A stretch of DNA of 56,997 nt from a virus: IMG/VR virus record IMGVR_UViG_3300044655_000346, positions 1 through 56,997 of that record; one strand, 5' to 3'. Each line of letters starts with the position of its first letter. Within the stretch, counting starts at the first letter, position 1. The notes below the pieces were generated by a model. That model was not told the origin of the DNA. It worked only from the letters and a program-made list of their open reading frames with translations, and did no database searches. This document shows positions 5,203 to 43,616 of the stretch, piece by piece. A program made the translations under genes and the position numbers.

Positions 5203-5773
5203 TCTGGCTGGTGATACCAGCGGAAATATCACAGTATCAGCCCCTGCTGTTGCTGGTACAAATACGCTGACGCTTCCAGCATTAACTGGAACTGTTCTTA
5301 CAAACAAAACGGCAGGGACTGTGTTGCAAGTTGTTAGCGTCGCCAAAACCAATGTTTTTACCACGACAAGCACAACTCTTGTTGATATTACTGGGTTAAG
5401 CGTAAGCATAACTCCAACTTCTGCAACAAGTAAAATTTTAGTGCTGTGCAGCTTATCTCTAAATGTGACCAATGGAAATTACATGGCTCAAGCAGTATTG
5501 TTTAGTGGGGCAACAAGAATCTCTGTTGGCGATGCGGCTGGTAGTAGAACTCGGTCTTCTGCTTATGCAACAATTAATGGAGATAGAGGCCGTAGTCCAT
5601 TTTCAATTACTTTTTTAGACTCTCCAGCAACCACATCATCTACAACCTATAAATTTCAAGGTTTAGTAGAATCTGGTGGGACACTTTATATAAACCAAAA
5701 CGCAAGTGATGCAGATAACGCAAATAATGGCCGCAACGCATCGACAATAACACTTATGGAGATAGCGGCATGA
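5189..5773 (+). CDS. Distal tail fibre / receptor-binding protein (left copy)
   Basis: 194 residues starting MSSLSLAGDTSGNITVSAP with RBS AAAGGAAG; an upstream in-frame ATG at 5159 lies inside the endonuclease gene and is unlikely. The N-terminal GDTSGxITVSAPAVAGTNT segment is a common fibre stem module; the remainder is a beta-rich globular domain. From base 5318 to the stop it is identical to the gene at 42878-43462, while the first 40 residues differ at scattered sites, so this copy looks like A's 5' end joined to the shared sequence. The stop overlaps the next start by ATGA. Confidence 0.8.
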   Translation: MSSLSLAGDTSGNITVSAPAVAGTNTLTLPALTGTVLTNKTAGTVLQVVSVAKTNVFTTTSTTLVDITGLSVSITPTSATSKILVLCSLSLNVTNGNYMAQAVLFSGATRISVGDAAGSRTRSSAYATINGDRGRSPFSITFLDSPATTSSTTYKFQGLVESGGTLYINQNASDADNANNGRNASTITLMEIAA

Positions 5774-5927
5774 ATCACGATGCAATATATGCTCTTTACC
5801 CGCAAGTTGTCTCTGTTGATGATGGCACAGGTGCTTTTGATGCACAAGGGAACAAAGTTGAAATTGACTTAGATGCAGTCAATGCTTGGATTGACCCAAA
5901 CGCATACAAAGCCAAACGAGCATCAGA
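5318..5927. repeat. 610-bp direct repeat, left copy
   Basis: By line-by-line comparison this segment is identical to 43007-43616 with a constant offset of 37,689 bp. Homology continues at lower identity on both sides (67 identical bases at 5227-5293; patchy similarity through 7163). It covers most of the distal fibre gene and the first two thirds of the 86-residue gene. It is the probable junction between phage A and phage B sequence. Confidence 0.9.
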
Positions 5928-6030
5928 GTACCCATCATTTGCAGACCAATTTGATTTGTTGTTTCATGGCGGCATGGACGCATGGAAAGACGCAATTCAG
6001 GCAGTCAAAGCTAAATATCCAAAGGTTTAA
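5770..6030 (+). CDS. Tail-fibre assembly-like small protein (left copy)
   Basis: 86 residues. The N-terminus reads MNHDAIYALYPQVVSVDDGT and the C-terminus has the pattern RASEYPSFADQFDLLFHGG followed by DAWKDAIQAVKAKYPKV. That C-terminal pattern is frequent in small genes beside phage fibre genes that are thought to act as fibre chaperones. The gene overlaps the fibre gene by ATGA. It differs from the copy at 43459-43719 only at a few residues near the C-terminus. Confidence 0.72.
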   Translation: MNHDAIYALYPQVVSVDDGTGAFDAQGNKVEIDLDAVNAWIDPNAYKAKRASEYPSFADQFDLLFHGGMDAWKDAIQAVKAKYPKV

Positions 6031-6032
6031 CC

Positions 6033-6629
6033 ATGTCAATACTTGCTTTAACTTCTGACACGCTGATTGGTACACCAGCCACAGGAAACATTGAATACAA
6101 CGGTCAATTCTTTGGGACTGACAGCAATGCCGCCAGAGGGCAGTTGCAGAGGATTACTCAAACTACTGCTGTTGCGTCAACATCTGGAACTTCGGTTGAA
6201 TTTACCGCCATCCCTGCGTGGGCAAAAAAGATCACCGTGATGCTTAACGGGGTTAGTTCGGCTAGTACAGGTATTATTCAAGTCCAGTTAGGTACTGGCT
6301 CCACTTCGTACACCATATCTGGTTACTTAGGAGCAACCATAACAAACGCGACTATTGCAAACATTACAACAGGATTTGCTGTTAATGTTTCAGCGGGAAG
6401 TGCAGCAGCGGGAATAATTCATGGGTTAATGACTATCACCAACGTAACAGGTAATACTTGGGTTGCATCTGGAACATTTGCTCAAAGTCAAGCAGCAAAC
6501 GTTTCTTATATGGCATATTCTGTTCCACTTGGCGCTGCTCTTACAGCGGTGCGTGTTATTGCAAGCGCAACTGGATCGCCATCAGACACCTTTGACGCTG
6601 GCAATATCAACATTTTGTACGAGGGTTAA
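6033..6629 (+). CDS. Receptor-binding beta-protein, paralogue 1 (B)
   Basis: 198 residues. An N-terminal leader (LALTSDTLIGTPATGNIEYN) is shared with 43722-44300. The core has TTAVASTSGTSVEFTAIPAW, KKITVMLNGVSS and the C-terminal DTFDAGNINILYEG. Core edges are conserved with the next gene, while the middle (about 85-150) is unrelated, as expected for host-range determinants. It is probably a terminal fibre or tip subunit. Contains GATC at 6230 and 6574, unlike the rest of phage B. Starts 2 bp after the previous stop. Confidence 0.72.
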   Translation: MSILALTSDTLIGTPATGNIEYNGQFFGTDSNAARGQLQRITQTTAVASTSGTSVEFTAIPAWAKKITVMLNGVSSASTGIIQVQLGTGSTSYTISGYLGATITNATIANITTGFAVNVSAGSAAAGIIHGLMTITNVTGNTWVASGTFAQSQAANVSYMAYSVPLGAALTAVRVIASATGSPSDTFDAGNINILYEG

Positions 6630-6632
6630 ACT

Positions 6633-7163
6633 ATGTCCGTAATAATCGATGGATCAGCAAGCGTCACAATCAACTCAGGTGTGGTACTGGGGATTACCTC
6701 TGGCACTGCTGTTGCCAGCACATCAGGTACAAGCATTGACTTTACTTCTATCCCATCATGGGTGAAGCGGATTACAGTGATGTTTAGTGGAGTAAGTACA
6801 AGCGGAACATCTATTGTTCAAATTCAACTTGGTTCTGGTTCGGTAACAACAACGGGATATACCGCAAGTGCTTCCTACGGTACAACAGTTGGTCAATTTG
6901 GGGATGCTACAACTGGATTTGTTATTGAACCTTCTGCGTCTGCGACAGCGGGAGCTGTGCGTTATAGCTCTATTATTTTTTCATTGTTGTCTGCCAACAC
7001 TTGGGTTTCACAAGGCAATCTTTACACCACATCAACCAATCCAAATGTAACAAATGTTGGGAAAATTTCTCTGTCAGGCGTTCTTGATCGAGTACGCATT
7101 ACCACAGTAAACGGCACTGACACCTTTGACGCTGGAACAATCAACATTCTTTATGAAGGATAA
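6633..7163 (+). CDS. Receptor-binding beta-protein, paralogue 2 (B)
   Basis: 176 residues, a tandem paralogue of the preceding gene. It opens MSVIIDGSASVTINSGVVLG, then GTAVASTSGTSIDFTSIPSW, VKRITVMFSGVSTSG, and ends DTFDAGTINILYEG. The first ~60 and last ~30 residues match 44304-44846 closely while the centre differs. GATC occurs at 6652 and 7086. The gene is 3 bp after its neighbour. Role inferred from position and family style: fibre-tip or decoration subunit contacting the host. Confidence 0.72.
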   Translation: MSVIIDGSASVTINSGVVLGITSGTAVASTSGTSIDFTSIPSWVKRITVMFSGVSTSGTSIVQIQLGSGSVTTTGYTASASYGTTVGQFGDATTGFVIEPSASATAGAVRYSSIIFSLLSANTWVSQGNLYTTSTNPNVTNVGKISLSGVLDRVRITTVNGTDTFDAGTINILYEG

Positions 7164-7166
7164 AAA

Positions 7167-7361
7167 ATGACACACAGAACAGTAGTTAACTGCGAAACAG
7201 GCGTAGTCACACAAGTCGAGTACACACCTGAAGAACAAGCCGTGCATGATGCGGCAGTAGCGGCACAAGCTGAAGCGCAAGCACTTGCAGACGTTGAAGC
7301 AGCAGCACAAACATTAGCGGAGCAGGAGTACCCTAGTAATGGACAACCAACAAATATTTAA
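7167..7361 (+). CDS. Small Ala/Glu-rich phage protein
   Basis: 64 residues. It starts MTHRTVVNCETGVVTQVEYT followed by a helical stretch rich in Ala, Glu and Gln. A homologue at the same place in phage A is 44850-45026 (MTHRIVVNVETG). Both follow the receptor-binding pair and precede a one-span membrane gene. No function is known to me; conserved position suggests a fibre-assembly or lysis-edge role. It overlaps the next gene by 23 bp. Confidence 0.7.
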   Translation: MTHRTVVNCETGVVTQVEYTPEEQAVHDAAVAAQAEAQALADVEAAAQTLAEQEYPSNGQPTNI

Positions 7362-7563
7362 TGTGGTAGTCGGCATTGCTGGCTTTCTTGCTGTTTATGT
7401 TTTTAACAACACGACAAGACAGATACAAAAACTGGAGGACAAGATAAATGAATTACCTAAAGAATATGTGGCAAAAGATGATTACCGCTCTGACATCGCT
7501 GAAATCAAAGATATTCTCAAACAAATCTTCAACAAGCTAGACGCAAAGGCAGACAAACCTTGA
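7339..7563 (+). CDS. Single-span membrane protein with coiled coil
   Basis: 74 residues. An N-terminal membrane segment (FNVVVGIAGFLAVYVF) is followed by a charged helix with heptad-like spacing (TRQIQKLEDKINELPKEYVA and onward) and a Lys/Asp-rich tail. A topological analogue in phage A is 45023-45178, where the helix precedes the membrane span. Lysis accessory or holin-regulator roles are possible, but the sequence alone does not decide. RBS GGAG lies 11 bases upstream. Confidence 0.68.
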   Translation: MDNQQIFNVVVGIAGFLAVYVFNNTTRQIQKLEDKINELPKEYVAKDDYRSDIAEIKDILKQIFNKLDAKADKP

Positions 7564-7607
7564 ACATGGTGTTACATTCTCATATGTTAAATACACAGGA
7601 GAGTGTT

Positions 7608-8096
7608 ATGCCTATGCCTTTTCAAGATAAAACTGGTTTGCGTTTTGGCAGGTTGGTTGTCAAAGAGTTGATTTCTAAAAAACCTGTTGCAAAGTGGACT
7701 TGTGTTTGTGATTGCGGTAATAAGACTCAGGTTTGGGGTGGTCATTTAAGGAGTGGTGTCACTCGTTCTTGCGGTTGTTTATTGACTGATTCAAACAAAG
7801 AGAAAAAAACAACTCATGGTTTGACTAAAACAAGAACGTACAAATCATGGCGTTCAATGAAGATGAGATGCACATTACCTTCTATGCCTAGCTACAAGAA
7901 TTATGCGGGCAAAGGTATTGGGTTTGATGAATCATGGAATGACTTTAATAAATTCTATGAGGACATGGGTGAACGTCCAGAAGGCATGAGCTTGGACAGG
8001 ATTGACAACAGCAAGAGCTACAACAAAGAAAATTGTCGTTGGGCAGATGCAAAAACTCAAGCAAATAATCGTATTCAAAGGAAATCAAAAGTATGA
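7608..8096 (+). CDS. HNH-type homing endonuclease with zinc ribbon
   Basis: 162 residues from the ATG at 7608, chosen because AGGAGAG precedes it by 4 bases; an earlier in-frame ATG (7566) lacks this. N-terminal GxRFGRLVVKEL and a CVCDCGNKT...SCGC four-cysteine ribbon, then TYKSWRSMKMRC, a basic middle, and the catalytic-region pattern MSLDRIDNSKSYNKENCRWA. This architecture is common in free-standing phage homing endonucleases. It interrupts the B late region and is AT-rich. Its last codons overlap the next start (ATGA). Confidence 0.8.
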   Translation: MPMPFQDKTGLRFGRLVVKELISKKPVAKWTCVCDCGNKTQVWGGHLRSGVTRSCGCLLTDSNKEKKTTHGLTKTRTYKSWRSMKMRCTLPSMPSYKNYAGKGIGFDESWNDFNKFYEDMGERPEGMSLDRIDNSKSYNKENCRWADAKTQANNRIQRKSKV

Positions 8097-8431
8097 ATAT
8101 GGAAAGTTTGAGCTATGTAAAGTTCGGTGACAAAGACGGACTGGGAGAGTTTTTGTTTGAGAACGGGATGCAACACCAGTTGTTCTACGACATCCTTGGG
8201 GACAATGGTATTGCTGTTCAAAAGTATCCGTTGTCAGAAGCTGACCCTGATAACTTGGATGACTGGCTGTTTGTCCATAACCAAGAGCATCAGAGGCTGG
8301 CTAGTATTTTGGGGTTGGACAATCCTTTCCAATTGTTGGACAGTGATTGGAACGTGGAAGAAGATTTTTATGACTGGCTAGGTGTGCACCAAACCATTCA
8401 TCAACAGATAGCAACAGCTTTAGGAGTGTGA
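8093..8431 (+). CDS. Three-repeat helical protein of unknown function
   Basis: 112 acidic residues with three similar units: around 15-36 (GLGEFLFENGMQHQLFYDIL), 53-74 (LDDWLFVHNQEHQRLASILG) and 90-111 (FYDWLGVHQTIHQQIATALG). Each has an aromatic/acidic start, a conserved H-Q and a short hydrophobic helix. No membrane span. It stands just before the internal virion cluster. I do not recognise a named family; the internal triplication suggests a scaffold or protein-binding role. Confidence 0.72.
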   Translation: MNMESLSYVKFGDKDGLGEFLFENGMQHQLFYDILGDNGIAVQKYPLSEADPDNLDDWLFVHNQEHQRLASILGLDNPFQLLDSDWNVEEDFYDWLGVHQTIHQQIATALGV

Positions 8432-8432
8432 T

Positions 8433-8864
8433 ATGGCAGATGTGATGCAAACAATGAGGAAGCAGACTGTTGCTGAAGATATACCTATGCTTGATATTCT
8501 GAAGAATGAAGCAAAACAAAGAGGTGTTAACTTCAACAATTTGCATGGGATGCTCAAGAGTGACATAAAGAGCGGAAAGACAAGAATCATGCGTTCTGGC
8601 AACACTTTGTTGATATATGACATCATGCAACCTGGCTTTGCTGAAGTGCATATTGCTACTATGGATTCTCCTGACAAACTTGTTGTTGCTGTCAAAGATT
8701 TGTATCAAGCTATGAAAAAGTCAGGTTATAAAACACTTATGGCTATAACTGACAATTCACAGATTGCAAGAGTTTTAAATGCGGCAAAAGTTCCTGTCTC
8801 TGTTCGACAAATACCAAGCAAAGACGGCAAGGCCGAGTATCAATTAACCATACAGGTGCAATGA
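8433..8864 (+). CDS. Virion-associated protein preceding ejection proteins (T7 gp13 position)
   Basis: 143 residues. The N-terminal helix contains MQTMRKQTVAEDIPMLDIL; a central alpha/beta region includes GNTLLIYDIMQPGFAEVHIA and a C-terminal YKTLMAITDNSQIARVLNAA. The fold looks GNAT-like, as reported for small proteins at this position in T7-like and related phages, but no acetyl-CoA motif is clear. Gene 49464-49832 is the phage A positional equivalent. It overlaps the next gene by ATGA. Confidence 0.65.
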   Translation: MADVMQTMRKQTVAEDIPMLDILKNEAKQRGVNFNNLHGMLKSDIKSGKTRIMRSGNTLLIYDIMQPGFAEVHIATMDSPDKLVVAVKDLYQAMKKSGYKTLMAITDNSQIARVLNAAKVPVSVRQIPSKDGKAEYQLTIQVQ

Positions 8865-9916
8865 TGGGTAAAAAAATTACGCAAGCAGCTAATTGGGTTA
8901 ACAAAGAAGTTGTTCAACCAGTCGGTAATTTTGTTGGTGAAACAGTAGAGGCTATTGTTAATGACCCCCTACCATTTATTGCAACCGTTGCCCTGACATC
9001 AGTAGGTGTTCCTCCTGCTCTTGCATCTGCTGCCGTTACCGCAGCTAGAGGTGGAAGTATGGAAGATATTGTTGTTGCGGGAGTAGCAACCTATGCTGGA
9101 GGTGAAGTTGGTAAAGCGGCTGGTGCTAGTGCTACAAGTGCGGGAGCATCTGCTACGACTGCAAAAATTGCCGCTTCTGCTGCTGGCGCATCTACCGCTG
9201 TTGTTGTTGCTGGAACTGCTTCTGGTAAATCATTAGAAGAGTCTTTAAAAGACGGGTTGACTGCTGGTGCGTTGGCTGGTGCAACTACTGGCGTAATTGA
9301 ATATGGAAAAGAAGCTCTTACACCTCCTGAAACAGGTCAGGGTATCAAAGCTGTACCAGGCAAAGGCACTGAGCTTTTTGGTGACCAAACCAAAGTCAGT
9401 GGTACTGGATTAACCGAAAAAGTACCTACAGGTGGTGGACAAGGATTGACTGTTGATACTAGTGCCATTCTTCCAACTTCTTTGAAAAAATACGACACGG
9501 ATAAAAGTAGAGTCAGAGGAACAGAGGAGGGTGGTTTACAACCAGCTTACACCTCTGCGGCTGATACGTTAACTCCGCCATCTTTTGATAAGTCACTTGC
9601 ACCTGATGTTGGGTACAAAGAGCCAAGAACAGTCACAGAAGTTCCTGAACCACCTATTTCAAGGACAACAGAACAACTTGCAAGACCAATTGTTTCTGGT
9701 GCGTTGTCAGAGTTGTTTGGGCTTGGCCCTAAAGTTCCAGGCGCACCGTCTGCTGGTGACTCTTCTGTGGTTGCTCAAACTGCCACAACAGGCACTACCG
9801 TAGGCTTGACAGGAGCGGGTGGAGCGGGTGAAATTGAAAGTAAAGAGTCTGGCAAGAAACGTTCAAGCGTGTGGAATGAAGAGTCTTTACGACTCAAAGA
9901 TGCACTAGGAGTGTGA
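8861..9916 (+). CDS. Internal virion / ejection protein candidate 1
   Basis: 351 residues. The N-terminal third (residues 20-130) is rich in Ala/Gly/Val with small-residue hydrophobic stretches such as LPFIATVALTSVGVPPALAS and ASTAVVVAGTASG, consistent with membrane-interacting glycine-zipper helices of ejection proteins. The remainder is a low-complexity, Pro/Thr/Gly-rich linker ending in ESLRLKDALGV. In short-tailed phages such proteins are packed in the head and injected to build a channel. Role inferred from order and composition. Confidence 0.65.
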   Translation: MMGKKITQAANWVNKEVVQPVGNFVGETVEAIVNDPLPFIATVALTSVGVPPALASAAVTAARGGSMEDIVVAGVATYAGGEVGKAAGASATSAGASATTAKIAASAAGASTAVVVAGTASGKSLEESLKDGLTAGALAGATTGVIEYGKEALTPPETGQGIKAVPGKGTELFGDQTKVSGTGLTEKVPTGGGQGLTVDTSAILPTSLKKYDTDKSRVRGTEEGGLQPAYTSAADTLTPPSFDKSLAPDVGYKEPRTVTEVPEPPISRTTEQLARPIVSGALSELFGLGPKVPGAPSAGDSSVVAQTATTGTTVGLTGAGGAGEIESKESGKKRSSVWNEESLRLKDALGV

Positions 9917-9917
9917 T

Positions 9918-11057
9918 ATGGCAACATTAAAAAAGATGACCCGTGTAGGTGCAGATGTGCGCCAGATTGCTCGTTTGCTACAAGCAAAAGCACCTGAAAA
10001 CCACATGCTTGCTTACATCACCCCTGAAGAAGCAGAGTTGCTCAAATCCAGAGGTGGTAGCGGTATGCCTGACCCACAGACAGGTATTCCTACCTACTAT
10101 GTTCCTGACCCTGAATATGTTGACCCATATGCTCTTATACATATGCAGTATCCTCAACAAGAAAGTGGATTCGACCCTAGCGCAAGTACAGTTCCTGTGT
10201 CTCAAAGTGATATTGCTTCTTATACTGGTTATACTTTGCGACCCACAAATTCGGGAACAGGCACTGTTGCAAGTGATTCTTTGGGCGGGGAAAGTCAACA
10301 ACAAACTGCATCTTCATATTACACAGGTGGTTCACCTAGTGCGTATGGACAGCCTGGTGCTTTTTCTACTCTTGACCAAGTAAATCAACAAGAAACTGCC
10401 CCTTCATATTACATGGGTGGAACACCTTCAGCATACGCTAGAGCCGAATATCCAGCAGACTTAGGTTTACCACCTGTTGATATTAGAGATGTCGCCGCTC
10501 CACCTATTGACACCACTCCAAGCAAAACTATTGGAGAAAGATATTCTGACCTAGCAAGGAGCTTGGGTGTTAAAGAAGACACCTTGTCTCGTATAGGTTT
10601 GGCTGGTTTGCAAGTTGGTTTAGGTGCTAGACAAGCTAGATTAGCAAGAGAAGAGGCTAGAAAAGCAAAAGAAGAACAACAAAGACTTGCCTCACCATAC
10701 CAAGCAAAAGGTGCAGAATTACAGCGTCAAGCACAGGCTGGAGAGCTTACCCCTGCGGGAAGGCAACAATTGCAGACAGTGCAAGCACAGGCAGCACAAG
10801 CGGCTTCTTCCCGTGGCGGTGTAGGCGCACAGCAAACTGCGGCAAGAGTAGAAGCTATCCGAGGCCAGTTACTGCAACAACAGTATGACTACGGATTGAA
10901 GCTGTCAGGTATTGGTGACCAAATACTCTTGGGTTCTATCAGAACAGGATTGGAAGCTGACAGGTATGTCAATCAGTTATCTAACACTTACTTTACAAAC
11001 GTTGCAAGAACACTTGCAGGTTCACCCACAGTTATCCAATATGGAGTGCCAGCATAA
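9918..11057 (+). CDS. Internal virion protein candidate 2 (gp14-like)
   Basis: 379 residues. After an N-terminal helical part comes a Pro/Tyr/Ser/Gln-rich middle with near-repeats SSYYTGGSPSAYG and PSYYMGGTPSAYA. The C-terminal third is a long Ala/Gln/Arg helix (RQARLAREEARKAKEEQQRL, then QTVQAQAAQAASSRGGVGAQ). The phage A gene 49842-50657 has a related Ala/Gln helix with a GSRAGVQSAL motif. Likely ejected with the genome. Overlaps the next gene by ATGG/TAATGG context. Confidence 0.62.
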   Translation: MATLKKMTRVGADVRQIARLLQAKAPENHMLAYITPEEAELLKSRGGSGMPDPQTGIPTYYVPDPEYVDPYALIHMQYPQQESGFDPSASTVPVSQSDIASYTGYTLRPTNSGTGTVASDSLGGESQQQTASSYYTGGSPSAYGQPGAFSTLDQVNQQETAPSYYMGGTPSAYARAEYPADLGLPPVDIRDVAAPPIDTTPSKTIGERYSDLARSLGVKEDTLSRIGLAGLQVGLGARQARLAREEARKAKEEQQRLASPYQAKGAELQRQAQAGELTPAGRQQLQTVQAQAAQAASSRGGVGAQQTAARVEAIRGQLLQQQYDYGLKLSGIGDQILLGSIRTGLEADRYVNQLSNTYFTNVARTLAGSPTVIQYGVPA

Positions 11058-12511
11058 TGGTTGATTCTGCACTTAAAGACATAACAAAACTTTCGGTCAT
11101 GCCAGCCTTGCCAAAAACAAGAGCGGTAATGCAACCGAAACCAACACCGTCTGGAATGATTGGTGCGTCTGAACTTGGCCCTGCATTAAGTGAATTAAGT
11201 GAGGCTGAAAGGCAATCATCAATGAGAGTTGGTGAAGCTGACATTGCTATAGAAGAAGCAAAAAGACAGGAAAAAGGACAAGAAGCAGAACTAAGACAAG
11301 AGCTAGTTGGTCGTATGGCAACAGAAGCAAGAAATTTGCCAGAACGTCAAGCATTGACTGCTGCAAGGACTGAGTTTGGCAATATGGCTTTTGTGCCTAC
11401 AAAAGAGACTACGCAAGACTTGGCGGGAATCTTCTCTCTTATGAGCATTGTTGGTATGGTTGTTGGCAAAGGTAATGCACAGCTTGCCATGTCTTCTATG
11501 AATGGCATGTTGGAAGGCTACCAAAAAGGCAGAGCAGACCTTTACAAAAAAGAACTTACACAGTTTGATAAGAACTTCAAAGCCATGCAAAGCAAGGTAC
11601 TGACTCTTGAAAAAGAGCTTTCCGAAGCGATGGAGTTGAAAAAACTTGACAGGGAAAAAGGTGACCTAGGAATTACTATGGCTTTGGCAAAAGGAGAGTC
11701 TCCATTGCTTGGTGCTATGCGTAACAAGTTAGGTGATGTTGCTGTTTTGAATGCCGTTAAGGATACTAAAAACACGTTAAATACTCTTGTTACCCTGAAC
11801 AATGACTTACGAGCAAAAGCTGATGCTAGAGCAGATGCCGCAGAACGTGAAAGACGAGCAGATGAGAGAGCAAGGCTTGCTAGACAACAAGCATTAGATT
11901 TAGCAAATGCAAAAGCCAAAGAAGGTGGTTTCTTAAAACCTGGCGCAAAAGTAACAGAAGGTTATGTTGCAGATGTAATCTTGAAAAATGATTTACAAGG
12001 CTTGGTACAAGATTTAAAAAATCCAAAGCTCATACAGCAGTTGAAACAATACCGAGTTGAAGCCTTCTTGACTGAAGAAGGTAAAGTATTGAATCAGCTT
12101 CTGGCTTCAGAAATACCTCCTGATTTGCTACAGTTTTTGACAAAAGTCAGAGACATTCGTAACAACTACTATCTGAACATATCTGGTAAAGCTGTGACAG
12201 GTGGAGAGGCTTTGCGTAGTTATGGTGCTGTTCCACAGCCAGGTGATGATGCACAGGGTATGCTTAATAAGGTTGGCGGTATGGCTAGTAGGATTGAAAA
12301 CTCTATTAACCTCAAACGTCAGTTGTATGGTTACCCTGAATTAAATTTACAAGGAGGCACAAAAACAAACTTGGCTCCTGGTGAAGACTACACAAGAGAT
12401 GATTCACAAACTCAACGTAGGAGTTTTGCATCTACCGCAGAAGCAGAAGCAGCCAATCTTCCAAAAGGAACAAGAATCACCATTAACGGCAGAAATGCTA
12501 CTGTGGAGTAA
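11057..12511 (+). CDS. Internal virion protein candidate 3
   Basis: 484 residues, mostly helical. Coiled-coil-prone stretches lie at about 50-90 (EAKRQEKGQEAELRQELVGR), 165-200 and 250-285 (RADAAERERRADERARLARQ). A short hydrophobic patch (GIFSLMSIVGMVVG) occurs near 125-140. The C-terminus ends in a small Gly/Asn-rich domain, KGTRITINGRNATVE. The pattern fits phage ejection-machinery proteins. No enzyme motif seen. Starts at the last base of the preceding stop codon. Confidence 0.62.
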   Translation: MVDSALKDITKLSVMPALPKTRAVMQPKPTPSGMIGASELGPALSELSEAERQSSMRVGEADIAIEEAKRQEKGQEAELRQELVGRMATEARNLPERQALTAARTEFGNMAFVPTKETTQDLAGIFSLMSIVGMVVGKGNAQLAMSSMNGMLEGYQKGRADLYKKELTQFDKNFKAMQSKVLTLEKELSEAMELKKLDREKGDLGITMALAKGESPLLGAMRNKLGDVAVLNAVKDTKNTLNTLVTLNNDLRAKADARADAAERERRADERARLARQQALDLANAKAKEGGFLKPGAKVTEGYVADVILKNDLQGLVQDLKNPKLIQQLKQYRVEAFLTEEGKVLNQLLASEIPPDLLQFLTKVRDIRNNYYLNISGKAVTGGEALRSYGAVPQPGDDAQGMLNKVGGMASRIENSINLKRQLYGYPELNLQGGTKTNLAPGEDYTRDDSQTQRRSFASTAEAEAANLPKGTRITINGRNATVE

Positions 12512-12513
12512 TC

Positions 12514-15093: not shown

Positions 15094-15094
15094 G

Positions 15095-15620: not shown

Positions 15621-15655
15621 TAATATGGTTATTCCGTTATTAGAGAAGGAAAATC

Positions 15656-16411: not shown

Positions 16412-16420
16412 GGGTTGTAA

Positions 16421-33151: not shown

Positions 33152-33153
33152 AA

Positions 33154-35294: not shown

Positions 35295-35473
35295 TGGCTA
35301 CAAACAATACAGGTATGACACAACCTACGGCTGACCAACCAAGGGTTGACACCGCTTCTTTGAAACGCAATGAGGCCGCACCTAACTTGACTTTGCGTCA
35401 AACAGGGTATAAAACCTCATACGGAAGAAGCCAACGTGACTTCAACCGTAAACAAACTGGAGGAATGCGATGA
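35291..35473 (+). CDS. Small polar late protein
   Basis: 60 residues, Thr/Gln/Asn-rich: MMATNNTGMTQPTADQPRVD, AAPNLTLRQTGYKTSYGRSQ, basic end. Overlaps the portal stop (ATGATG). Possibly intrinsically disordered, perhaps virion-associated. No family. Confidence 0.6.
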   Translation: MMATNNTGMTQPTADQPRVDTASLKRNEAAPNLTLRQTGYKTSYGRSQRDFNRKQTGGMR

Positions 35474-35511
35474 ACATGAAGCCAAAAAGCGGTCGTAAGT
35501 GCCGCCGTTAA
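35470..35511 (+). CDS. Tiny basic ORF (13 codons)
   Basis: MNMKPKSGRKCRR, with the excellent RBS GGAGGAATGCG immediately upstream and an ATGA overlap with the previous stop. It may be a genuine mini-protein or a translational-coupling leader. Very short, so low certainty. Confidence 0.35.
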   Translation: MNMKPKSGRKCRR

Positions 35512-35579
35512 TCAGGATTCCGTGAGGAATGGGTATGGCTGCCTCCCCTTTGTAGGTGGCCTTGTAAAAGGAAATTATC

Positions 35580-35654
35580 ATGATGTACGGAAAAGCAAAA
35601 ATGGCTCCCAAAATGGCTCGTATGGGACGCAAAGCCCGTAAAGGCCGCAAGTAA
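35580..35654 (+). CDS. Tiny basic protein (24 aa)
   Basis: MMYGKAKMAPKMARMGRKAR, then KGRK. Eight or more Lys/Arg and five Met. GGA lies eight bases before the ATG. It may bind nucleic acid during packaging. Its length limits certainty. Confidence 0.42.
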   Translation: MMYGKAKMAPKMARMGRKARKGRK

Positions 35655-35661
35655 TGTCTAC

Positions 35662-35686
35662 AGAGGGCTGACAAAAAATGCCCTCT
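35662..35686 (+). terminator. Hairpin without U-run before scaffold gene
   Basis: AGAGGGC (35662-35668) and GCCCTCT (35680-35686) form a perfect 7-bp stem with an 11-base loop. No T-run follows, so it may attenuate or process rather than terminate. It directly precedes a good -35 element. Confidence 0.5.
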
Positions 35687-35691
35687 ACCTA

Positions 35692-35720
35692 TTGACAAGA
35701 TGTTTGTAAGTGGTTACAAA
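35692..35720 (+). promoter_or_regulatory. Sigma70-type promoter candidate for head genes
   Basis: Perfect -35 TTGACA (35692-35697), 17-bp spacer and TACAAA (35715-35720, four of six matches). It lies 18 bp before the scaffold-side gene at 35738, after a hairpin, and could give extra expression of scaffold and capsid. Confidence 0.5.
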
Positions 35721-35737
35721 CACGGCAAGGAGTGATT

Positions 35738-36202
35738 ATGAGTGTTCCACCAGATAAGTTGATGGAGTTAATGCGAGGTAGCCAAGCGGCTGCGGGTGCA
35801 CCGACCCCTAACGAAAAGGAAGAACCAGAAGAAATGGACACAGAGGCTCCAGAGCCTCCTCCAATGGCTTCTCCTATGTCTACTCCAGAACCCAAGATGG
35901 GAAATAAAGAAGCCGCACTTATCAACATAAGTATGGCTATCGACTTGCTTGAGCAATCTCTTCCCGCTTTTGGCTCAGTTTCTGAGGAGGGGAAGAAAAC
36001 CCTCAACGCTATTCGTGCACTCAGTGGGTTGATTGGTCAGAAAAAAGGCAAAACTGACGAATTACAGCAATCTGAGATTCTTCAGTTACTGCAAACCTTG
36101 CCACAGGCGGGTGGTGCTACCCCTGAAGGCAGAGCAATGGCTCAAGCACCTATCCCTGGTATGCCTCCCGCTGGCGGTATGCCTTCTCCTCCCCCAATGT
36201 AA
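35738..36202 (+). CDS. Pro/Met-rich protein between portal and capsid
   Basis: 154 residues from ATG 35738 with AAGGAG upstream. Acidic Pro-rich N-terminus (PNEKEEPEEMDTEAPEPPPM), a helical middle (EAALINISMAIDLLEQSLPA; SEEGKKTLNAIRALSGLIGQ) and a Pro/Gly/Met-rich end (GMPPAGGMPSPPPM). Such proteins occur beside the scaffold in several podovirus lineages. A scaffold cofactor role is plausible. Confidence 0.66.
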   Translation: MSVPPDKLMELMRGSQAAAGAPTPNEKEEPEEMDTEAPEPPPMASPMSTPEPKMGNKEAALINISMAIDLLEQSLPAFGSVSEEGKKTLNAIRALSGLIGQKKGKTDELQQSEILQLLQTLPQAGGATPEGRAMAQAPIPGMPPAGGMPSPPPM

Positions 36203-36211
36203 GGAATCAAA

Positions 36212-36394
36212 ATGGAACTCTTTAAGCCCAGAGGCGCAGCTGCACCTCGCAAACCAACAGACAACAACCAACAAAATGGCGTTGTCACCAACACTCCACG
36301 TTTTTCTCAGTTCGGTGGCTTGAGTGGCCCGAACAAATTGAACAAATCAAGCATGGCTCTCCAAAAGCCAGGTGATGGTAAGCGTGTCATTTAA
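36212..36394 (+). CDS. Small disordered head-region protein
   Basis: 60 residues, Pro/Asn/Lys-rich: MELFKPRGAAAPRKPTDNNQ, FSQFGGLSGPNKLNKSSMAL. RBS AAGGAATC. Between the portal and scaffold genes; unknown role. Confidence 0.62.
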   Translation: MELFKPRGAAAPRKPTDNNQQNGVVTNTPRFSQFGGLSGPNKLNKSSMALQKPGDGKRVI

Positions 36395-36415
36395 TCGTAT
36401 AAAGAGGGTAACTTT

Positions 36416-36946
36416 ATGTCACTAGAAAATCTTTCCTTAGAAGCCCGTGATGAGTTGGCTGCACTTGCTCAAACTCTTGCGGAAAACCCTGATACTCGCA
36501 AAGACTTCTTGCGTATGACTAGAAAGGTCAAACCAGACCTTCCTATTCCTGAACTCGACATTGAAGACTACACACACAGAGCGGTCAGCCGTTCTGAAGA
36601 CCGTGTGCAAGCCTTAGAAGCCAAGTTGCGTGAGAAAGAAGCGATTGAAGAACTTAACAATCGCAGACAGAGCTTGATGAAAAAGGGTTTGATTTCTAAC
36701 GAATCAGAAGTTGGTGACGTAGAAAAAATCATGTTGGAGCGTGGTATCACAAATCACGAAACAGCAGCCGAATACCATCAGTGGATGAAGAAAGCCGCAG
36801 TGCCTACTTCATCTGGATACAACCCAAGTGCTGTCAAGCAATTTGACTTGAACAAGTATTGGAAGAATCCAGCAGCCGCTGCTCGTAATGAGGCAATGAA
36901 TGCGCTCAATGACTTGCGTAAACCGCAACGTCCTATTGGGTTGTAA
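36416..36946 (+). CDS. Scaffolding protein candidate
   Basis: 176 residues, highly charged helices: LSLEARDELAALAQTLAENP, SRSEDRVQALEAKLREKEAI, EELNNRRQSLMKKGLISNES, and a basic C-terminus with NPAAAARNEAMNALNDLRKP. Position directly before the capsid gene and coiled-coil composition fit a scaffold that shapes the procapsid and leaves before maturation. A run of eight T follows the stop (36955-36962) without a stem. Confidence 0.72.
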   Translation: MSLENLSLEARDELAALAQTLAENPDTRKDFLRMTRKVKPDLPIPELDIEDYTHRAVSRSEDRVQALEAKLREKEAIEELNNRRQSLMKKGLISNESEVGDVEKIMLERGITNHETAAEYHQWMKKAAVPTSSGYNPSAVKQFDLNKYWKNPAAAARNEAMNALNDLRKPQRPIGL

Positions 36947-36975
36947 GAGGGTAGTTTTTTTTCATAGGAGGCCTT

Positions 36976-37977
36976 ATGGCTATTGGCGGCGGCATCCTAC
37001 CAGCAACAGGGTCAGCACAGTTCAACGAACTGACTTACGTTACTCGTAGAGCCTTCATCCCCAAGCTGGTTGTCCAGCTTTATAACTCGACACCCCTCAT
37101 GGCGGCTCTGATTGCCAACAGTCAGTCAGCCTCTGGTGGCGTGTCTTCCGTAACCGTTCCCGTCCAAGGCGCACAGTTTGTGAACGCTCAATGGTCTGAC
37201 TACAGTGGCTCTTTTGCCCAACCGTCAGTCCAGCAAGGTGCTTACAACGCTGAGTTCGACCTGAAACTGATGATTTCTCCTGTACCGTTCCTCGGTATGG
37301 AAGGCGCAGTTCAGCAAGATGCTGCCATTATTCCGTTGATTGAAGCTCGTATGAACGATGCAACCAACGTGATGATGGATGCAATGGCAACCGCTTTGTA
37401 CACCAACACCACCAATACACAACAGTTCATCGGTTTACCCGCTGCTGTTGCGAACTCAGGTACTTACGGCAACATTGACCGTAGCACCTACACTTGGTGG
37501 AAGTCTTCACAGTATGCCGCTGGCTCTGTGAACCCAACCCGTCAAAACATTCTGCAATACATTTCTGGCACAGTGAAAGCTGGTGCTGAAATGCCTAGCT
37601 TTGGTGTTTGCGGTTTTGGCACTTGGACACTGTTGGCTCAAGACTTTGTAGGTCAAGAGCAATACGTTATCACCCCAGGCGCAGGTTTTGATGGCGAAAC
37701 CAATGGCCCTCAAGCTGCTTTCCGTGCCTTGATGGTTGCTGGCGTACCTATCTATCCAGACCCTTACTGCCCTGAAGGTACTGTGTACTTCCTGAACACC
37801 AACTACTTGTCTCTGTACATCCATGAGCAAGGTTCGTTTGTGTTTACAGGCTTTGAGTCCACACTTCCTAACTGGCAAATTGGTTATGTTGGCGCAGTTT
37901 TGATGATTGCCGAATTGGTGAACGTCAAACCTAAGTCAATGACCAAGGTGACGGGTTACAACTACCTTTCACTGTAA
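36976..37977 (+). CDS. Major capsid protein (phage B)
   Basis: 333 residues with strong RBS AGGAGG. Starts MAIGGGILPATGSAQFNELT, then RRAFIPKLVVQLYNSTPLMA, VTVPVQGAQFVNAQWSDYSG, a spine helix around PLIEARMNDATNVMMDAMAT, and a C-terminal GYVGAVLMIAELVNVKPKSM. The plan is that of a HK97-fold coat protein of the type found in environmental podoviruses. It does not resemble the SU10-type capsid at 3-626, so the window holds two unrelated capsid lineages. Confidence 0.86.
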   Translation: MAIGGGILPATGSAQFNELTYVTRRAFIPKLVVQLYNSTPLMAALIANSQSASGGVSSVTVPVQGAQFVNAQWSDYSGSFAQPSVQQGAYNAEFDLKLMISPVPFLGMEGAVQQDAAIIPLIEARMNDATNVMMDAMATALYTNTTNTQQFIGLPAAVANSGTYGNIDRSTYTWWKSSQYAAGSVNPTRQNILQYISGTVKAGAEMPSFGVCGFGTWTLLAQDFVGQEQYVITPGAGFDGETNGPQAAFRALMVAGVPIYPDPYCPEGTVYFLNTNYLSLYIHEQGSFVFTGFESTLPNWQIGYVGAVLMIAELVNVKPKSMTKVTGYNYLSL

Positions 37978-37989
37978 GGAGAAAAAGTC

Positions 37990-38313
37990 ATGGCTTTAGC
38001 AATGAACAAAATCATTCTGGCGAATGCAACCACCAACACTGCTGGTGCGTACTTCTCCAACGTATCACTGACTGCCGCTAACGCAGGTACTGTGATTCCC
38101 GCAGGTACTTACATGGTGTTTCCCGCAGCTAACGTAATTGTTACTGCAAATAACGGCTCATCCATCGCAACCTTGCTTGCCAATAACACTGGCGGCATGA
38201 TTTTGTCTGATGGCGTGAACGTGTTTGCACAGTCAATTATTGCTGGCGCAGGTTCTGCTGTTGCTCTTACCATCAATGGTGGTATCAACGCAAACAGCAC
38301 CTACACAAGTTAA
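37990..38313 (+). CDS. Capsid decoration/stabilising protein candidate
   Basis: 107 residues, Ala/Asn/Gly/Thr-rich, beta-type: NATTNTAGAYFSNVSLTAAN, VIPAGTYMVFPAANVIVTAN, GAGSAVALTINGGINAN. Starts 12 bp after the capsid gene with AAGGAG. Small beta-proteins here often decorate capsids; the function is inferred. Confidence 0.65.
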   Translation: MALAMNKIILANATTNTAGAYFSNVSLTAANAGTVIPAGTYMVFPAANVIVTANNGSSIATLLANNTGGMILSDGVNVFAQSIIAGAGSAVALTINGGINANSTYTS

Positions 38314-38322
38314 GGAGACAGT

Positions 38323-38733
38323 ATGAACGCAAACCATGTAGGCGCACTGTATCCCGATAGTTTTGGTAATGTTTTGATTGGGCACACCTCTACTCCCTTA
38401 GGTTTGGGAAGCACAGGTAATGCACGAGCAACTATTCCAACAATCGGTACAAACTACATTGTTCGCCGTATTACTGTCCAAAATGCCAATGGAAGTGTTG
38501 CGCTTGCCAACGTCACCATCATTAACAGCAGTGATGGTGTCGTCGCAAACGCAGTTTCTAACGCAGTTGTATTGGGAAATATCACAGCAACAACAAAGTA
38601 TCAGGATTTAGGGTTGACGGCAAACACTGCCACAACAATTTATTCTGGTTCTTTGTTTGTGTGTGTCAATACAGCCGCTGCCGCAAACAACACAGTTGAC
38701 ATCGCAGTGTACGGTGACGTTGTAACTCTATGA
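38323..38733 (+). CDS. Small beta-rich virion protein
   Basis: 136 residues: NANHVGALYPDSFGNVLIGH, GTNYIVRRITVQNANGSVAL, then a Val/Ala/Thr-rich C-terminus. Probably a head or appendage protein. Similar in composition to the gene before it. ATGA overlap with the next gene. Confidence 0.65.
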   Translation: MNANHVGALYPDSFGNVLIGHTSTPLGLGSTGNARATIPTIGTNYIVRRITVQNANGSVALANVTIINSSDGVVANAVSNAVVLGNITATTKYQDLGLTANTATTIYSGSLFVCVNTAAAANNTVDIAVYGDVVTL

Positions 38734-39071
38734 CAGAACTCGTTTATGTAACTAACCATACCGATAAAGACCTGTACGCTGAGTACAACTATGTCGGTTA
38801 TGACTTTCCTATTGGCAAGACAGTTGAGTTGACTGTCCCTGCTGCTAGGCACATGCTTGGTTACGAAGATGAGGACAAGGAGAAGTATCTTGTCCAGTTG
38901 GGTTTGATACGACTTCACAGCGAACTTGAAGAAGCAACGGAAAAATTCAGGGGTGTTCAAATTTCTGAAGAGTCTCCCAAAAAGAACAGCTCGTTACCCT
39001 CGGCTGTTGGCGTAGTACCCTTACGGCTTGAGAGAGCCGTGGGGGGAAAGTCCAATCAGAGGGTTGCATAA
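38730..39071 (+). CDS. Head-completion-type hypothetical protein
   Basis: 113 residues: LVYVTNHTDKDLYAEYNYVG, DFPIGKTVELTVPAARHMLG, DKEKYLVQLGLIRLHSELEE. The IGKTVELTVPAARHMLG pattern occurs in phage proteins located between capsid and adaptor genes. The last ~25 residues are basic. Likely a virion or head-tail component. Confidence 0.68.
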   Translation: MTELVYVTNHTDKDLYAEYNYVGYDFPIGKTVELTVPAARHMLGYEDEDKEKYLVQLGLIRLHSELEEATEKFRGVQISEESPKKNSSLPSAVGVVPLRLERAVGGKSNQRVA

Positions 39072-39083
39072 CATGAAGGTAAC

Positions 39084-39923
39084 ATGGCAACTCTCTCTTC
39101 CTACATCACGGAAGTACAGCGTTTATTGCATGATGCAAACTCTGTCTTCTGGACAACCTCGGAGCTAACGGACTACATCAACGATGCCCGTGAGCGAGTA
39201 GCGAGAGATACTGGGTGCTTACGCACCCTTCAAATTACTGCCACCCCAATTTCTAACACAGGCGTACCCGCAACCGTATGGACTGCGGGTGCTACTGTTA
39301 CTGCTGGCGAGTTTGTATTCAATAACATTTTCATTTACGAAGTAACTGTCAGTGGTGTGTTAAGTAGTACAGCCCCGCCTTATCCAGCTTCTGGCTACAC
39401 TTTTCCGCCTTCTACTCCATTCACAGATGGCACTGCCACTTTACAATATTCTGGCCCTGCGGAAATTATTCCCTATGCCACTATTGCCACAGGCACGACA
39501 CTAGACATTCTGAACGTCAACGTTTACTGGGGCAACAGCCGTATTCCTTTGCGGTACTTGCCCTGGTCAAACTTCAACGCACAGCTACGCTACTGGCAAA
39601 ATTATGTAGGTAGACCCGTGTGTTTCTCTGTTTATGGTCAAAACAATATCTACATTGGCCCTGTTCCAGACCAAGCCTATGTGGTGGAGATAGACAGCAC
39701 TATCTTGCCTACGCCATTGAGCTTGAACACGCCCAACGCTAATGACCAGATACAAGACCCCTACACCACTCCTGTAGCTTTTTATGCGGCTTACAAAGCC
39801 AAGTACAAGGAGCAGAGCTATGGGGAAGCTGAAATATACAAACAAGAATATGCCAAGCAGGTTCAAGCAGTGCTGAACTCTGTGTATACCCGCAGAATCC
39901 CTGACCCCTATAGCACGTTCTAA
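39084..39923 (+). CDS. Head-to-tail adaptor protein (phage B)
   Basis: 279 residues. N-terminal [40 protein letters not shown] is the typical adaptor start; the beta-rich centre ([20 protein letters not shown]) is an insertion relative to 2101-2730; the C-terminal part [20 protein letters not shown] and the helix [20 protein letters not shown] match the SU10/P22-style adaptor plan. It bridges portal and tail. Confidence 0.8.
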
Positions 39924-39925
39924 TC

Positions 39926-41923
39926 ATGGCAGCAGCAGAACAAAAGAAATCTTATGCTGTCTATAAGAATTTCAAAGGCCTGAATACCAAGGCCAATAGA
40001 ACAGCTATTGATGAGGAAGAGTTTTCGTGGATAGAAAATGCCATGCCTATCGGGTTTGGCAACATCAAGATTGTTCCAGCCCAAGTAACTGTTAAAGATG
40101 GTGGTAATAACGCTATCTCGTTTGGAAACACGGTAACAACGCTTGTCAATACAAATTTAGAGTTGTCTGACTATTTGTTGGCTTTCCAAGAAGATGGTAG
40201 AGGACAGTACGTCATCATAGACACAGGTACTGTAGGCAATGTTGGCGTGACAGGTACATTCTCTTCTGCAAATATATCTATCGCACAGTGGAAGAATGAA
40301 GAGGTATATATAGGTGACCCCAACAAAGGACTCTTTTCTTGGGATGGCACGAACCTACTTAATGTTGGTGGTGTAGGTCAGATAGGGATTACAAACAGGG
40401 GGTCAGGATATATTTCTGCGCCAGCAGTTACCATCTCTGCCCCTAACCAGGCAAATGGCACACAGGCCACAGCAGAGGCAACAATCACTGCAAATGCCGT
40501 GTCATCCATCGCTATTACTGAAGGCGGTAGCGGGTATACCGCTGCACCTACCGTAACAATTACAGGCGGTGGCGGGAGCGGTGCTACTGCTATTGCTGAA
40601 ATCCTTACCTTTACAAAAGGTGCGTTGTTTGTTCAAGTTACAAACGGTGGTTCTGGTTATAACCCTGCATCTCCTCCCGCTGTAACCATCTCTGGTGGTG
40701 GTGGAGCAAATGCCGCTGCTACTGCTATCGTATTTGGCAATGCAGTAACACAAGTCATCATGTCAAATGTGGGCAACAACTTCACAAGTGTGCCTACAGT
40801 CACGATAGCTGCTCCTCCTACTCCTACGGGAAATGCAAATGCCACTGTAATAGGTGTGCCTAACCTAGAAGAGATAGCAAGTGTTTCTACCTTTTCTGGT
40901 CGGGTATGGGTTGCTACAGGTCGTACAGTTACCTTTTCCTCTGCAACTAGTCCTACTGATTTCACTTCTCTTTCTGCGGGGTCAGAGACAATTACAGACT
41001 CTACCTTGCGTGGCAACATACAAAACATGGTGTCTGCCAACAACTTTCTGTACATTTTTGGTGAAGACAGCATCAACGTGTTCTCAGATGTGCGGATTAC
41101 AAACACAGGGGATACCCTATTTACGAACACAAACGTGTCTGCGTCTGTAGGCAGTAAGCTCAAGTACGCTGTTTACCCTTACTTCCGTTCTGTGCTGTTT
41201 ATGAATAACTACGGGGTGTATGCCCTAGTTGGCTCAACAACAAGCAAGATTTCTGACCAACTAGATGGCATCTTTCCCTATATTGACTTTACCAAACCTG
41301 TGACTGCTGGTCAGGTCTTGCTAAACAACATTCTCTGCGCTGCATTTAACTTCTACCTGAATTCCAGTTTTCCTACCACCACGGGAGACAGGTTTGTACA
41401 GTGCGTGTTTTTTGAGAAGAAATGGTTTGTGACAAGCCAGGGTGCGTTGCGGTATGTGTCATCTGCCCCTGTAGGTGGCTTGATTAACTTGTATGGGGTA
41501 ACAGAGACTGCTCTTTTCAAGCTGTACGGGGATGCAACTGCAAATATCTCTTCTGAGATACAGACATCTTTGTCTCCTATGAAAGACCCTATTAGAACCA
41601 AACAAGCCTTGAAGTTTGGTATTGAAGCAACATTGTCTAATTCTGCCACCTTTACTGTTACTGTTGATAGTGAGTACGGAAGTAGCCCCCCTTACACTTT
41701 AACCAACGGTGCGGTTAATTGGATTAACAACAGTTCAGTTGTTATTCCTTGGACAAACAGTTTTAGCGCAATTATTCCTTGGCTGTCTTCTGGTGGATAC
41801 AACTTGTATAAATCAGATGCACAGCAATACGGCAAATATCTGGGTTTGACCATGACATCAACAGACCCCGCTTTTGTCGTAAACACATTTGAGTTTGAAC
41901 ATGAATTGAGAGTGAGGTTTTAA
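39926..41923 (+). CDS. Tail stabilisation protein with GSGY tandem repeats
   Basis: 665 residues. The first ~150 ([37 protein letters not shown]) and last ~350 ([40 protein letters not shown]) resemble P22 gp10-type tail hub/needle-side proteins, as does the phage A gene 47986-49467. Between ~150 and 305 lie four tandem units such as [40 protein letters not shown]. These repeats are absent from the A protein, suggesting a domain insertion, perhaps carbohydrate-binding. Confidence 0.75.
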
Positions 41924-42868
41924 ATGGCAGTTCCGTATACCTTTCAATCGGCAACGGGTTCTATTCCGCTGTCTCAGCTTGATAGCAACTTCGCTACCGC
42001 TATTACTATTGGTAATACGGCTGTTGTCCTTGGTGACTCTATAAGCACCATCAACAATTTAAGTCTTGCCAACGTCAGCATATCTAGTGTTTCTACTGCT
42101 TTTCCAAATGGATACTTGGCAAACAGCAATGTAATTGTGGGAACAACCACACTGACACTTGGCAGCACTGTTAGCACTATAGATGGCTTAACTTTAAGTA
42201 ATGTCACTATTTCAAGTGGAAATGTGACTATCACAAACGTGTCTGTTACTACAGCAAATGTTACTACTGCTAACGTAGGTACGTTAATAGTTAGCCAAAA
42301 TGCAACTGTTAATGGAAACGTGTCTGTTATTGGTAATGTCAGCATGAACGTGGCTACCATCACAACTGCAAATGTGAGTGGCACTGCAAATATATCCACA
42401 CTTGTAGTAACTGGGAATGCAAGTTTTACAAGCACAGGAGCTGTGTTGTTGGCAAAAGGTACAACTGCACAACAACCCACAGGTGTGGCTGGTTCGTTAA
42501 GGTTTAACACTGACACAAATACATTTGAGGGCTACAACGGCACTGCATGGTCTGCTGTAGGCGGAGGGTCAACATTATCAAACGACACGACTACAGCAAC
42601 AAACTTGTATCCAATATTTGCAGCCGCAACCACTGGAACACCAACAACCGTATACACAGGTAACGCTAAACTACTTTATAAACCAAGCACAGGCGAATTT
42701 ACATCTTCTGTGCTGACGGCAGGTAACGGCATTGTGGTAAACAGTCAGTCAGTGGCAACAAGCTATACGATTGCGGTGGGGTACTCAGCAATGTCATCAG
42801 GGCCAATCACAATTGCCTCTGGTCAAACGGTCACAGTATCTAGCGGTTGTCGCTGGGTTGTTCTGTAA
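41924..42868 (+). CDS. Tail fibre protein (phage B)
   Basis: 314 residues. N-terminal PYTFQSATGSIPLSQLDSNF is a fibre attachment motif. A repetitive shaft rich in Asn/Val/Thr/Ser follows (about 30-165; LTLSNVTISSGNVTITNVSV, TTANVTTANVGTLIVSQNAT). Then GTTAQQPTGVAGSLRFN, FEGYNGTAWSAVGGG, and a C-terminus ending GCRWVVL as in the phage A fibre at 3937-4440. Probably trimeric. Confidence 0.8.
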   Translation: MAVPYTFQSATGSIPLSQLDSNFATAITIGNTAVVLGDSISTINNLSLANVSISSVSTAFPNGYLANSNVIVGTTTLTLGSTVSTIDGLTLSNVTISSGNVTITNVSVTTANVTTANVGTLIVSQNATVNGNVSVIGNVSMNVATITTANVSGTANISTLVVTGNASFTSTGAVLLAKGTTAQQPTGVAGSLRFNTDTNTFEGYNGTAWSAVGGGSTLSNDTTTATNLYPIFAAATTGTPTTVYTGNAKLLYKPSTGEFTSSVLTAGNGIVVNSQSVATSYTIAVGYSAMSSGPITIASGQTVTVSSGCRWVVL

Positions 42869-42877
42869 AGGAAAAAT

Positions 42878-43462
42878 ATGTCCTCAGTAATTATTTCAGG
42901 AGACACCAGCGGGGCTATCACAGTATCAGCCCCTGCTGTTGCTGGTACAAATACGCTGACGCTTCCAGCATTAACTGGAACTATTCTTACCGATAAGACC
43001 GTGGGAACTGTGTTGCAAGTTGTTAGCGTCGCCAAAACCAATGTTTTTACCACGACAAGCACAACTCTTGTTGATATTACTGGGTTAAGCGTAAGCATAA
43101 CTCCAACTTCTGCAACAAGTAAAATTTTAGTGCTGTGCAGCTTATCTCTAAATGTGACCAATGGAAATTACATGGCTCAAGCAGTATTGTTTAGTGGGGC
43201 AACAAGAATCTCTGTTGGCGATGCGGCTGGTAGTAGAACTCGGTCTTCTGCTTATGCAACAATTAATGGAGATAGAGGCCGTAGTCCATTTTCAATTACT
43301 TTTTTAGACTCTCCAGCAACCACATCATCTACAACCTATAAATTTCAAGGTTTAGTAGAATCTGGTGGGACACTTTATATAAACCAAAACGCAAGTGATG
43401 CAGATAACGCAAATAATGGCCGCAACGCATCGACAATAACACTTATGGAGATAGCGGCATGA
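42878..43462 (+). CDS. Distal tail fibre / receptor-binding protein (right copy)
   Basis: 194 residues. Starts MSSVIISGDTSGAITVSAP; preceded by AAAGGAAAAAT, the same leader that precedes the endonuclease gene in phage A. From base 43007 to the stop it is identical to the left copy 5189-5773. Here no endonuclease separates it from the fibre gene, so this is the uninterrupted arrangement. Confidence 0.82.
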   Translation: MSSVIISGDTSGAITVSAPAVAGTNTLTLPALTGTILTDKTVGTVLQVVSVAKTNVFTTTSTTLVDITGLSVSITPTSATSKILVLCSLSLNVTNGNYMAQAVLFSGATRISVGDAAGSRTRSSAYATINGDRGRSPFSITFLDSPATTSSTTYKFQGLVESGGTLYINQNASDADNANNGRNASTITLMEIAA

Positions 43463-43616
43463 ATCACGATGCAATATATGCTCTTTACCCGCAAGTTGTC
43501 TCTGTTGATGATGGCACAGGTGCTTTTGATGCACAAGGGAACAAAGTTGAAATTGACTTAGATGCAGTCAATGCTTGGATTGACCCAAACGCATACAAAG
43601 CCAAACGAGCATCAGA
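43007..43616. repeat. 610-bp direct repeat, right copy
   Basis: Identical by eye to 5318-5927, offset 37,689 bp. Covers the distal fibre gene from its 43rd codon or so and most of the 86-residue gene. Probable right junction between phage B (left of it) and phage A (right of it). Confidence 0.9.

What the first reader, a model, noticed from the sequence alone, without database searches (positions are those of the whole stretch)
5318..43616. A complete 37.7-kb phage genome appears inserted into a second phage through a shared 610-bp fibre segment
Identical 610-bp direct repeats lie exactly 37,689 bp apart. The DNA between them has one of each essential gene (terminase, portal, scaffold, capsid, adaptor, stabilisation, fibre, lysis, recombination). 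The arms outside together lack duplicates: the left arm has an SU10-type capsid and adaptor, the right arm has the stabilisation, lysis and internal proteins. That is the product of one crossover between a circular genome B and genome A. The same structure arises when an assembler walks once around a loop in its graph, which I consider more likely. Either way it implies recent sharing of a receptor-binding segment between phages with unrelated capsids.
Basis: partly seen in the sequence, partly recalled or inferred. Interest (0 to 1): 0.85.

Follow-up and report, generated by a model that had tools for sequence, protein, structure and literature searches.

The report
Two phage genomes misjoined at fibre
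This stretch of DNA looks like two different freshwater phages that an assembly program stitched together at a 610-letter piece of a host-recognition gene that both carry, so the 'inserted genome' is probably not real, but the sharing of that gene piece between phages with different shells probably is.

Summary
The repeat is real: 5318-5927 equals 43007-43616 exactly (610 bp, 37,689 bp apart), inside a 1,048-bp, 94% match. The contig holds two genomes. The arms (A, SU10-type capsid) are colinear with a 37.2-kb A-type phage in which they adjoin; they make up about half of it, and A's scaffold, portal and terminase are absent here. The middle (B) is a full B-type genome whose ends adjoin in relatives, including a complete circular GenBank phage of 35.6 kb. 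Tetranucleotide profiles split the contig the same way. No other A- or B-type record tested carried both, and none exceeded 40 kb. The best explanation is an assembly path that entered and left a circular B genome through the shared segment; no reads were available, so an in vivo cointegrate is not excluded. What survives is biological: A and B share a fibre cassette. Its core gene has a predicted TNF-like-lectin fold, is 99.2% identical in A-type phages from other metagenomes whose capsid regions are 88-97% identical, and has diverged relatives in at least four other capsid or connector lineages. A complete B-type GenBank phage carries a diverged version. This is a new example of known receptor-binding-module exchange.

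The parts
1..5317 (+). A left arm: SU10-type capsid (3-626), SU10-type adaptor (2101-2730), A fibre 1 (3937-4440), A homing endonuclease, start of the fibre gene
   Evidence: phrog_1328/PF17236, phrog_2941/PF24175; colinear with G015 and G018
5318..5927 (+). Repeat copy R1: exact 610-bp shared core of the fibre gene and the small gene after it
   Evidence: exact self-match
43007..43616 (+). Repeat copy R2
   Evidence: exact self-match
5210..6257 (+). Extended homology around R1 (94% to 42899-43946)
42899..43946 (+). Extended homology around R2
5928..7338 (+). 3' half of the cassette assigned to B: genes 6033-6629, 6633-7163, about 7167-7358; closest relatives mostly outside both A and B
   Evidence: the last gene overlaps the start of B gene 7339-7563
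7339..42423 (+). B genome body: conserved cassette-end gene (7339-7563), holin relative (17208-17603), RecT/RecE-like genes (minus strand, 20.9-23.1 kb), terminase (30234-31988), portal (33648-35294), capsid (36976-37977), adaptor (39084-39923), closure protein (39926-41923), fibre 1 N-terminus (41924-42423)
42424..43006 (+). 5' half of B's cassette: fibre 1 C-terminal domain found in non-B phages, and start of the shared fibre gene
42878..43462 (+). Shared fibre gene (194 aa), predicted TNF-like-lectin jelly roll
   Evidence: phrog_6942 hit for the R1 copy; model pLDDT 67.6; PDB fold matches
43617..45185 (+). 3' half of A's cassette, ending in a gene closest to A-type phages
45186..56997 (+). 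A right arm: spanin, endolysin, stabilisation protein, internal proteins
   Evidence: colinear with G015 and G018
4456..5202 (+). GIY-YIG-type homing endonuclease at the start codon of A's fibre gene
   Evidence: phrog_314 and phrog_5123; site uninterrupted in L033 and L003
7560..8096 (+). HNH homing endonuclease at the 3' edge of B's cassette
   Evidence: phrog_374; site uninterrupted in L080, L082, L084, L089

Best explanation
The record is a chimeric assembly. Two phages of about 37 kb lived in one sample. A has an SU10-type capsid; B is circularly mapping with an unrelated capsid sequence. Both carried the same 610-bp receptor-binding segment inside their fibre cassettes. With short reads that segment forms one node with two ways in and two ways out, so the assembler walked A-left, segment, once round B, segment, A-right. 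Shown: the exact repeat, the two gene sets, the colinearity of each part with relatives, the composition split, and the absence of both genomes together in any other record tested. Inferred: that the switch happened in the assembler rather than in a cell. The shared segment itself is most likely a mobile receptor-binding module that spreads between phages by recombination (inferred from its distribution and identity).
For: Repeat. A arms are colinear and adjoin in G015 (37,176 bp) and G018; the missing half of A holds scaffold, portal and terminase. B's ends (..42022 and 7339..) adjoin through other 1-4 kb cassettes in L080, L082, L084, L088, L089, L095, run on in G001 and G004, and in the circular complete genome MW202753. 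Tetranucleotide correlation: A-left/A-right 0.83, B segments 0.83-0.87, A against B 0.52-0.68. Of 569 loci typed by marker proteins, none carries both A and B core markers. In whole records, none of the A-type records has B's terminase and no B-type record has A's stabilisation protein (positive control); the largest A- and B-type records are 38.3 and 39.7 kb. Assemblers of related data appear to have run round circular genomes into other strains: inexact end overlaps in G015 and G005. De Bruijn assemblers cannot tell which upstream contig joins which downstream contig at a conserved region (PMC11443906).
Against: No reads or coverage were available. Many assemblers would break at a 610-bp repeat rather than pass it. 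R1 with both flanks (5240-6077) resembles the L003/L004 haplotype more than R2 does, which could mean R1 is one unbroken molecule; beyond 6081 the resemblance switches to R2, so phasing is unresolved. The rest of A was not found in the same sample.
Confidence: 0.87

Rival explanations
1. A real cointegrate: one homologous crossover in a co-infected cell joined circular B DNA to A DNA at the shared segment.
For: The structure is exactly what one crossover gives; B encodes RecT-like and RecE-like recombination proteins.
Against: A full product would be about 75 kb while A- and B-type records are at most 38.3 and 39.7 kb, and complete circular relatives are 35.6 and 36.5 kb, so it should not fit a virion that packages unit length (inference). 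No other record holds both types.
Confidence: 0.05
2. A different misjoin: two A-type strains, each with its own fibre cassette, were joined to a linear B segment near 7.3 kb and near 42.4 kb, and B never carried this cassette.
For: None of 139 B-type loci carries a close copy of this cassette; both cassettes look A-like in their core.
Against: No sequence shared by A and B was found at those two points; fibre 1 is an in-frame fusion there and the cassette's last gene overlaps B's next start codon. The 3' cassette genes on the B side are mostly closest to neither A nor B, while those on the A side are A-like at the border. B-type MW202753 has a diverged cassette of the same layout, and B-type L139 has the same fibre 1 C-terminal domain.
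Confidence: 0.06
3. One phage of 57 kb or more with two capsid sets, or a tandem duplication within one phage.
For: A single contig.
Against: Capsids, adaptors and closure proteins are not copies of each other; composition and relatives split cleanly into two genomes; A lacks half its genes.
Confidence: 0.02

Closest known systems
Chimeric contigs in viral metagenome assemblies (PMC3901335, PMC11443906)
   Same: Different viruses joined at a sequence they share, where a de Bruijn graph cannot tell which ends belong together
   Different: Here one whole circular genome is traversed, so both junctions sit in one contig, and the shared node is a receptor-binding gene rather than a conserved core gene
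Shared host-recognition modules of distantly related Alteromonas phages A5, V22 and P24 (PMC10579305)
   Same: A multi-gene fibre module shared by phages with otherwise unrelated genomes
   Different: There sharing is at 35-67% protein similarity in isolated phages; here a 610-bp core is identical, in uncultured phages, with no tested host
Domain mosaicism of phage receptor-binding proteins (PMC10684548)
   Same: Lineage-specific N-terminus fused to an exchangeable C-terminal domain, as in fibre 1 at 41924-42868
   Different: Here two putative exchange partners appear to come from one sample

Membership tests
Chimeric assembly at a shared repeat | Exact repeat longer than assembler k-mers at both switch points | tested here: met
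   610 bp exact
Chimeric assembly at a shared repeat | Each part is separately contiguous in related genomes | tested here: met
Chimeric assembly at a shared repeat | Reads support the unchimeric junctions rather than the assembled ones | not testable with these tools
   no reads held
In vivo phage cointegrate | Both genomes on one molecule in independent records | tested here: not met
   none among A- and B-type records and loci searched
Shared receptor-binding module (Alteromonas A5/V22 kind) | Homologous fibre genes in phages with unrelated capsid and packaging genes | tested here: met
   related fibre gene with capsid or connector families phrog_1328, phrog_9953 (distant, L009), phrog_21712, phrog_283, phrog_578
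Shared receptor-binding module (Alteromonas A5/V22 kind) | Module binds a host receptor | not testable with these tools
   only a predicted lectin-like fold
B-type phage (MW202753 relatives) | Capsid, terminase, portal and tail genes in conserved order | tested here: met
A-type phage with SU10-type head genes | SU10_MCP capsid and SU10 adaptor | tested here: met
   PF17236 1.5e-51, PF24175 6.1e-37; whole-genome kinship to SU10 not tested

The most novel reading that the evidence does not exclude
A real recombinant molecule in which a complete circular phage B was captured by phage A through a shared, highly conserved lectin-like receptor-binding module, caught at the cointegrate stage; with homing endonucleases at both cassettes driving their exchange between capsid lineages.
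Probability: 0.04. Interest if true: 0.75.

Novelty: new member of a known kind. Interest (0 to 1): 0.3.

Why it matters
Left uncorrected, this record enters databases as one 57-kb phage with two capsids. Corrected, it suggests that two phages with different capsids in one sample carry an identical receptor-binding segment, and so perhaps competed for the same host. The misassembly signature (one long exact repeat in a fibre gene, unit-length spacing, doubled head genes) could be searched for across viral contig collections to find recent receptor-module exchange between co-occurring phages.

Tried and rejected
A B-type record (G004) is exactly 37,689 bp, the same as the repeat spacing; it is only about 70% identical with unequal parts, so this is coincidence. 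Phasing A and B across R with L003/L004 was inconclusive because their similarity switches from R1-like to R2-like near 6080. An exact search for the cassette/B junction (39 bases) found nothing in other viral records. Near-identical phages in GenBank: none for window 1-25000 by megablast. B-type loci with a close copy of the cassette: none in 139; L065 and L072 first seemed to be such, but match B only through the 7339-7563 gene at about 40%. That gene is not a B marker, since A-type phages carry it too, so it was dropped from the typing. Pfam gave nothing for the fibre proteins. The search of third-lineage records for the SU10 capsid rang in no control, so it shows nothing.

Full report
OBSERVATION. 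The window is a whole viral record of 56,997 bp with no end repeats. The stated repeat is exact: 5318-5927 equals 43007-43616, 610 bp, offset 37,689. It is the core of a 1,048-bp ungapped match at 94%, with weaker colinear matches up to 7313/45002. Flank divergence is about 8-13%, against which 610 identical bases are not chance.

TWO GENOMES. The outer arms carry an SU10-type capsid and adaptor, spanin, endolysin and a stabilisation protein. The middle carries another capsid, terminase, portal, adaptor, closure protein and RecT/RecE-like genes. Tetranucleotide profiles group arm with arm (0.83) and middle with middle (0.83-0.87), and separate the two (0.52-0.68).

RELATIVES OF A. In G015 (37,176 bp) window 1-4436, a fibre cassette and 44757-56997 are colinear and continuous across the record's ends; G018 agrees. 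The part of G015 missing from the window encodes scaffold, portal, terminase and an exonuclease. The arms are therefore about half of one genome, with the window's two ends about 17 kb apart in it.

RELATIVES OF B. In six close relatives (80-92% DNA identity), B's left side up to about 42,020 and its right side from 7339 or 8093 are neighbours, separated only by a variable 1-4 kb fibre cassette. G001 and G004 show the rest of the circle. MW202753, a complete circular genome of 35,640 bp, has the same arrangement.

NO OTHER JOINT RECORD. No locus among 569 carries both A and B core markers. A-type records, up to 38.3 kb, lack B's terminase, and B-type records, up to 39.7 kb, lack A's stabilisation protein; the only hits were 29-35% identical ones in records of other lineages (control).

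INTERPRETATION. One shared segment, two entries, two exits and one path that uses each edge once gives exactly this contig. An assembler can make that path and so can one crossover. The assembler is preferred because the crossover product would be about twice the unit genome and nothing like it is seen elsewhere. Short-read assemblers are known to be blind at such points (PMC11443906) and to join viruses at shared genes (PMC3901335). Without reads this remains an inference.

THE SHARED MODULE. B's fibre 1 has a B-type N-terminus (up to 83% identical in B-type loci) fused near residue 165 to a C-terminal domain seen in non-B phages. The next gene holds the 610-bp core. The same core has only 5 differences in 610 in A-type contigs L003 and L004 from other metagenomes, while the capsid regions of these and other close A-type phages are 88-97% identical to the window. 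This points to recent spread of the module, though selection for conservation could contribute. Diverged relatives of the gene occur with distant phrog_9953, phrog_21712, phrog_283 and phrog_578 head or connector genes. MW202753 carries a diverged version of the cassette: fibre 1 C-terminus, start of the shared gene, and the small gene after it. So a B-type phage with this kind of cassette exists independently of the window.

FUNCTION. The protein is in a tail-fibre family (phrog_6942). A model of moderate confidence (pLDDT 67.6, shallow alignment) resembles TNF-like lectins (BC2L-C, PLTL; E down to 1.9e-6) and more weakly the cyanophage A-1(L) fibre domain and the lambda central tail fibre. 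Sugar binding on the host surface is inferred, not shown.

POSSIBLE DRIVER. Each cassette has a homing endonuclease at its edge that is absent from close relatives. These could promote local exchange; this was not tested.

VERDICT. Insertion most likely an assembly artefact; two real phages; real sharing of a receptor-binding module of a known kind.

Noticed in passing
4456-5202 and 7560-8096: Homing endonucleases sit at the 5' edge of A's fibre gene and the 3' edge of B's cassette, absent from the same sites in close relatives; L088 has another (GIY-YIG-like) at the B site and L084 one inside its cassette.
   Followed up: partly
7339-7563: A 74-aa gene that ends B's cassette also occurs at about 79% identity in A-type phages (e.g. 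L396, L401), so the cassette border itself is shared between lineages.
   Followed up: partly
G015 and G005 record ends: Inexact end overlaps (476 bp at 87%; 2.2 kb at 89%) suggest assemblies that ran round a circle into another strain.
   Followed up: partly
L570 (CAITMU010000022.1, 36,786 bp) and L571: B-type capsids (87-88%) binned into betaproteobacterial metagenome-assembled genomes: a weak host hint.
   Followed up: no
L411 (PQ492659.1): Limnohabitans phage DC33, a 39-kb genome with tailed-phage-like gene content, is filed in its taxonomy line as Inoviridae, which looks like a labelling error.
   Followed up: no
L437, L440, L492, L535, L546, L556 (viral records of 53-66 kb): Several longer records carry related fibre genes; whether any are chimeras of the same kind was not checked.
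   Followed up: no
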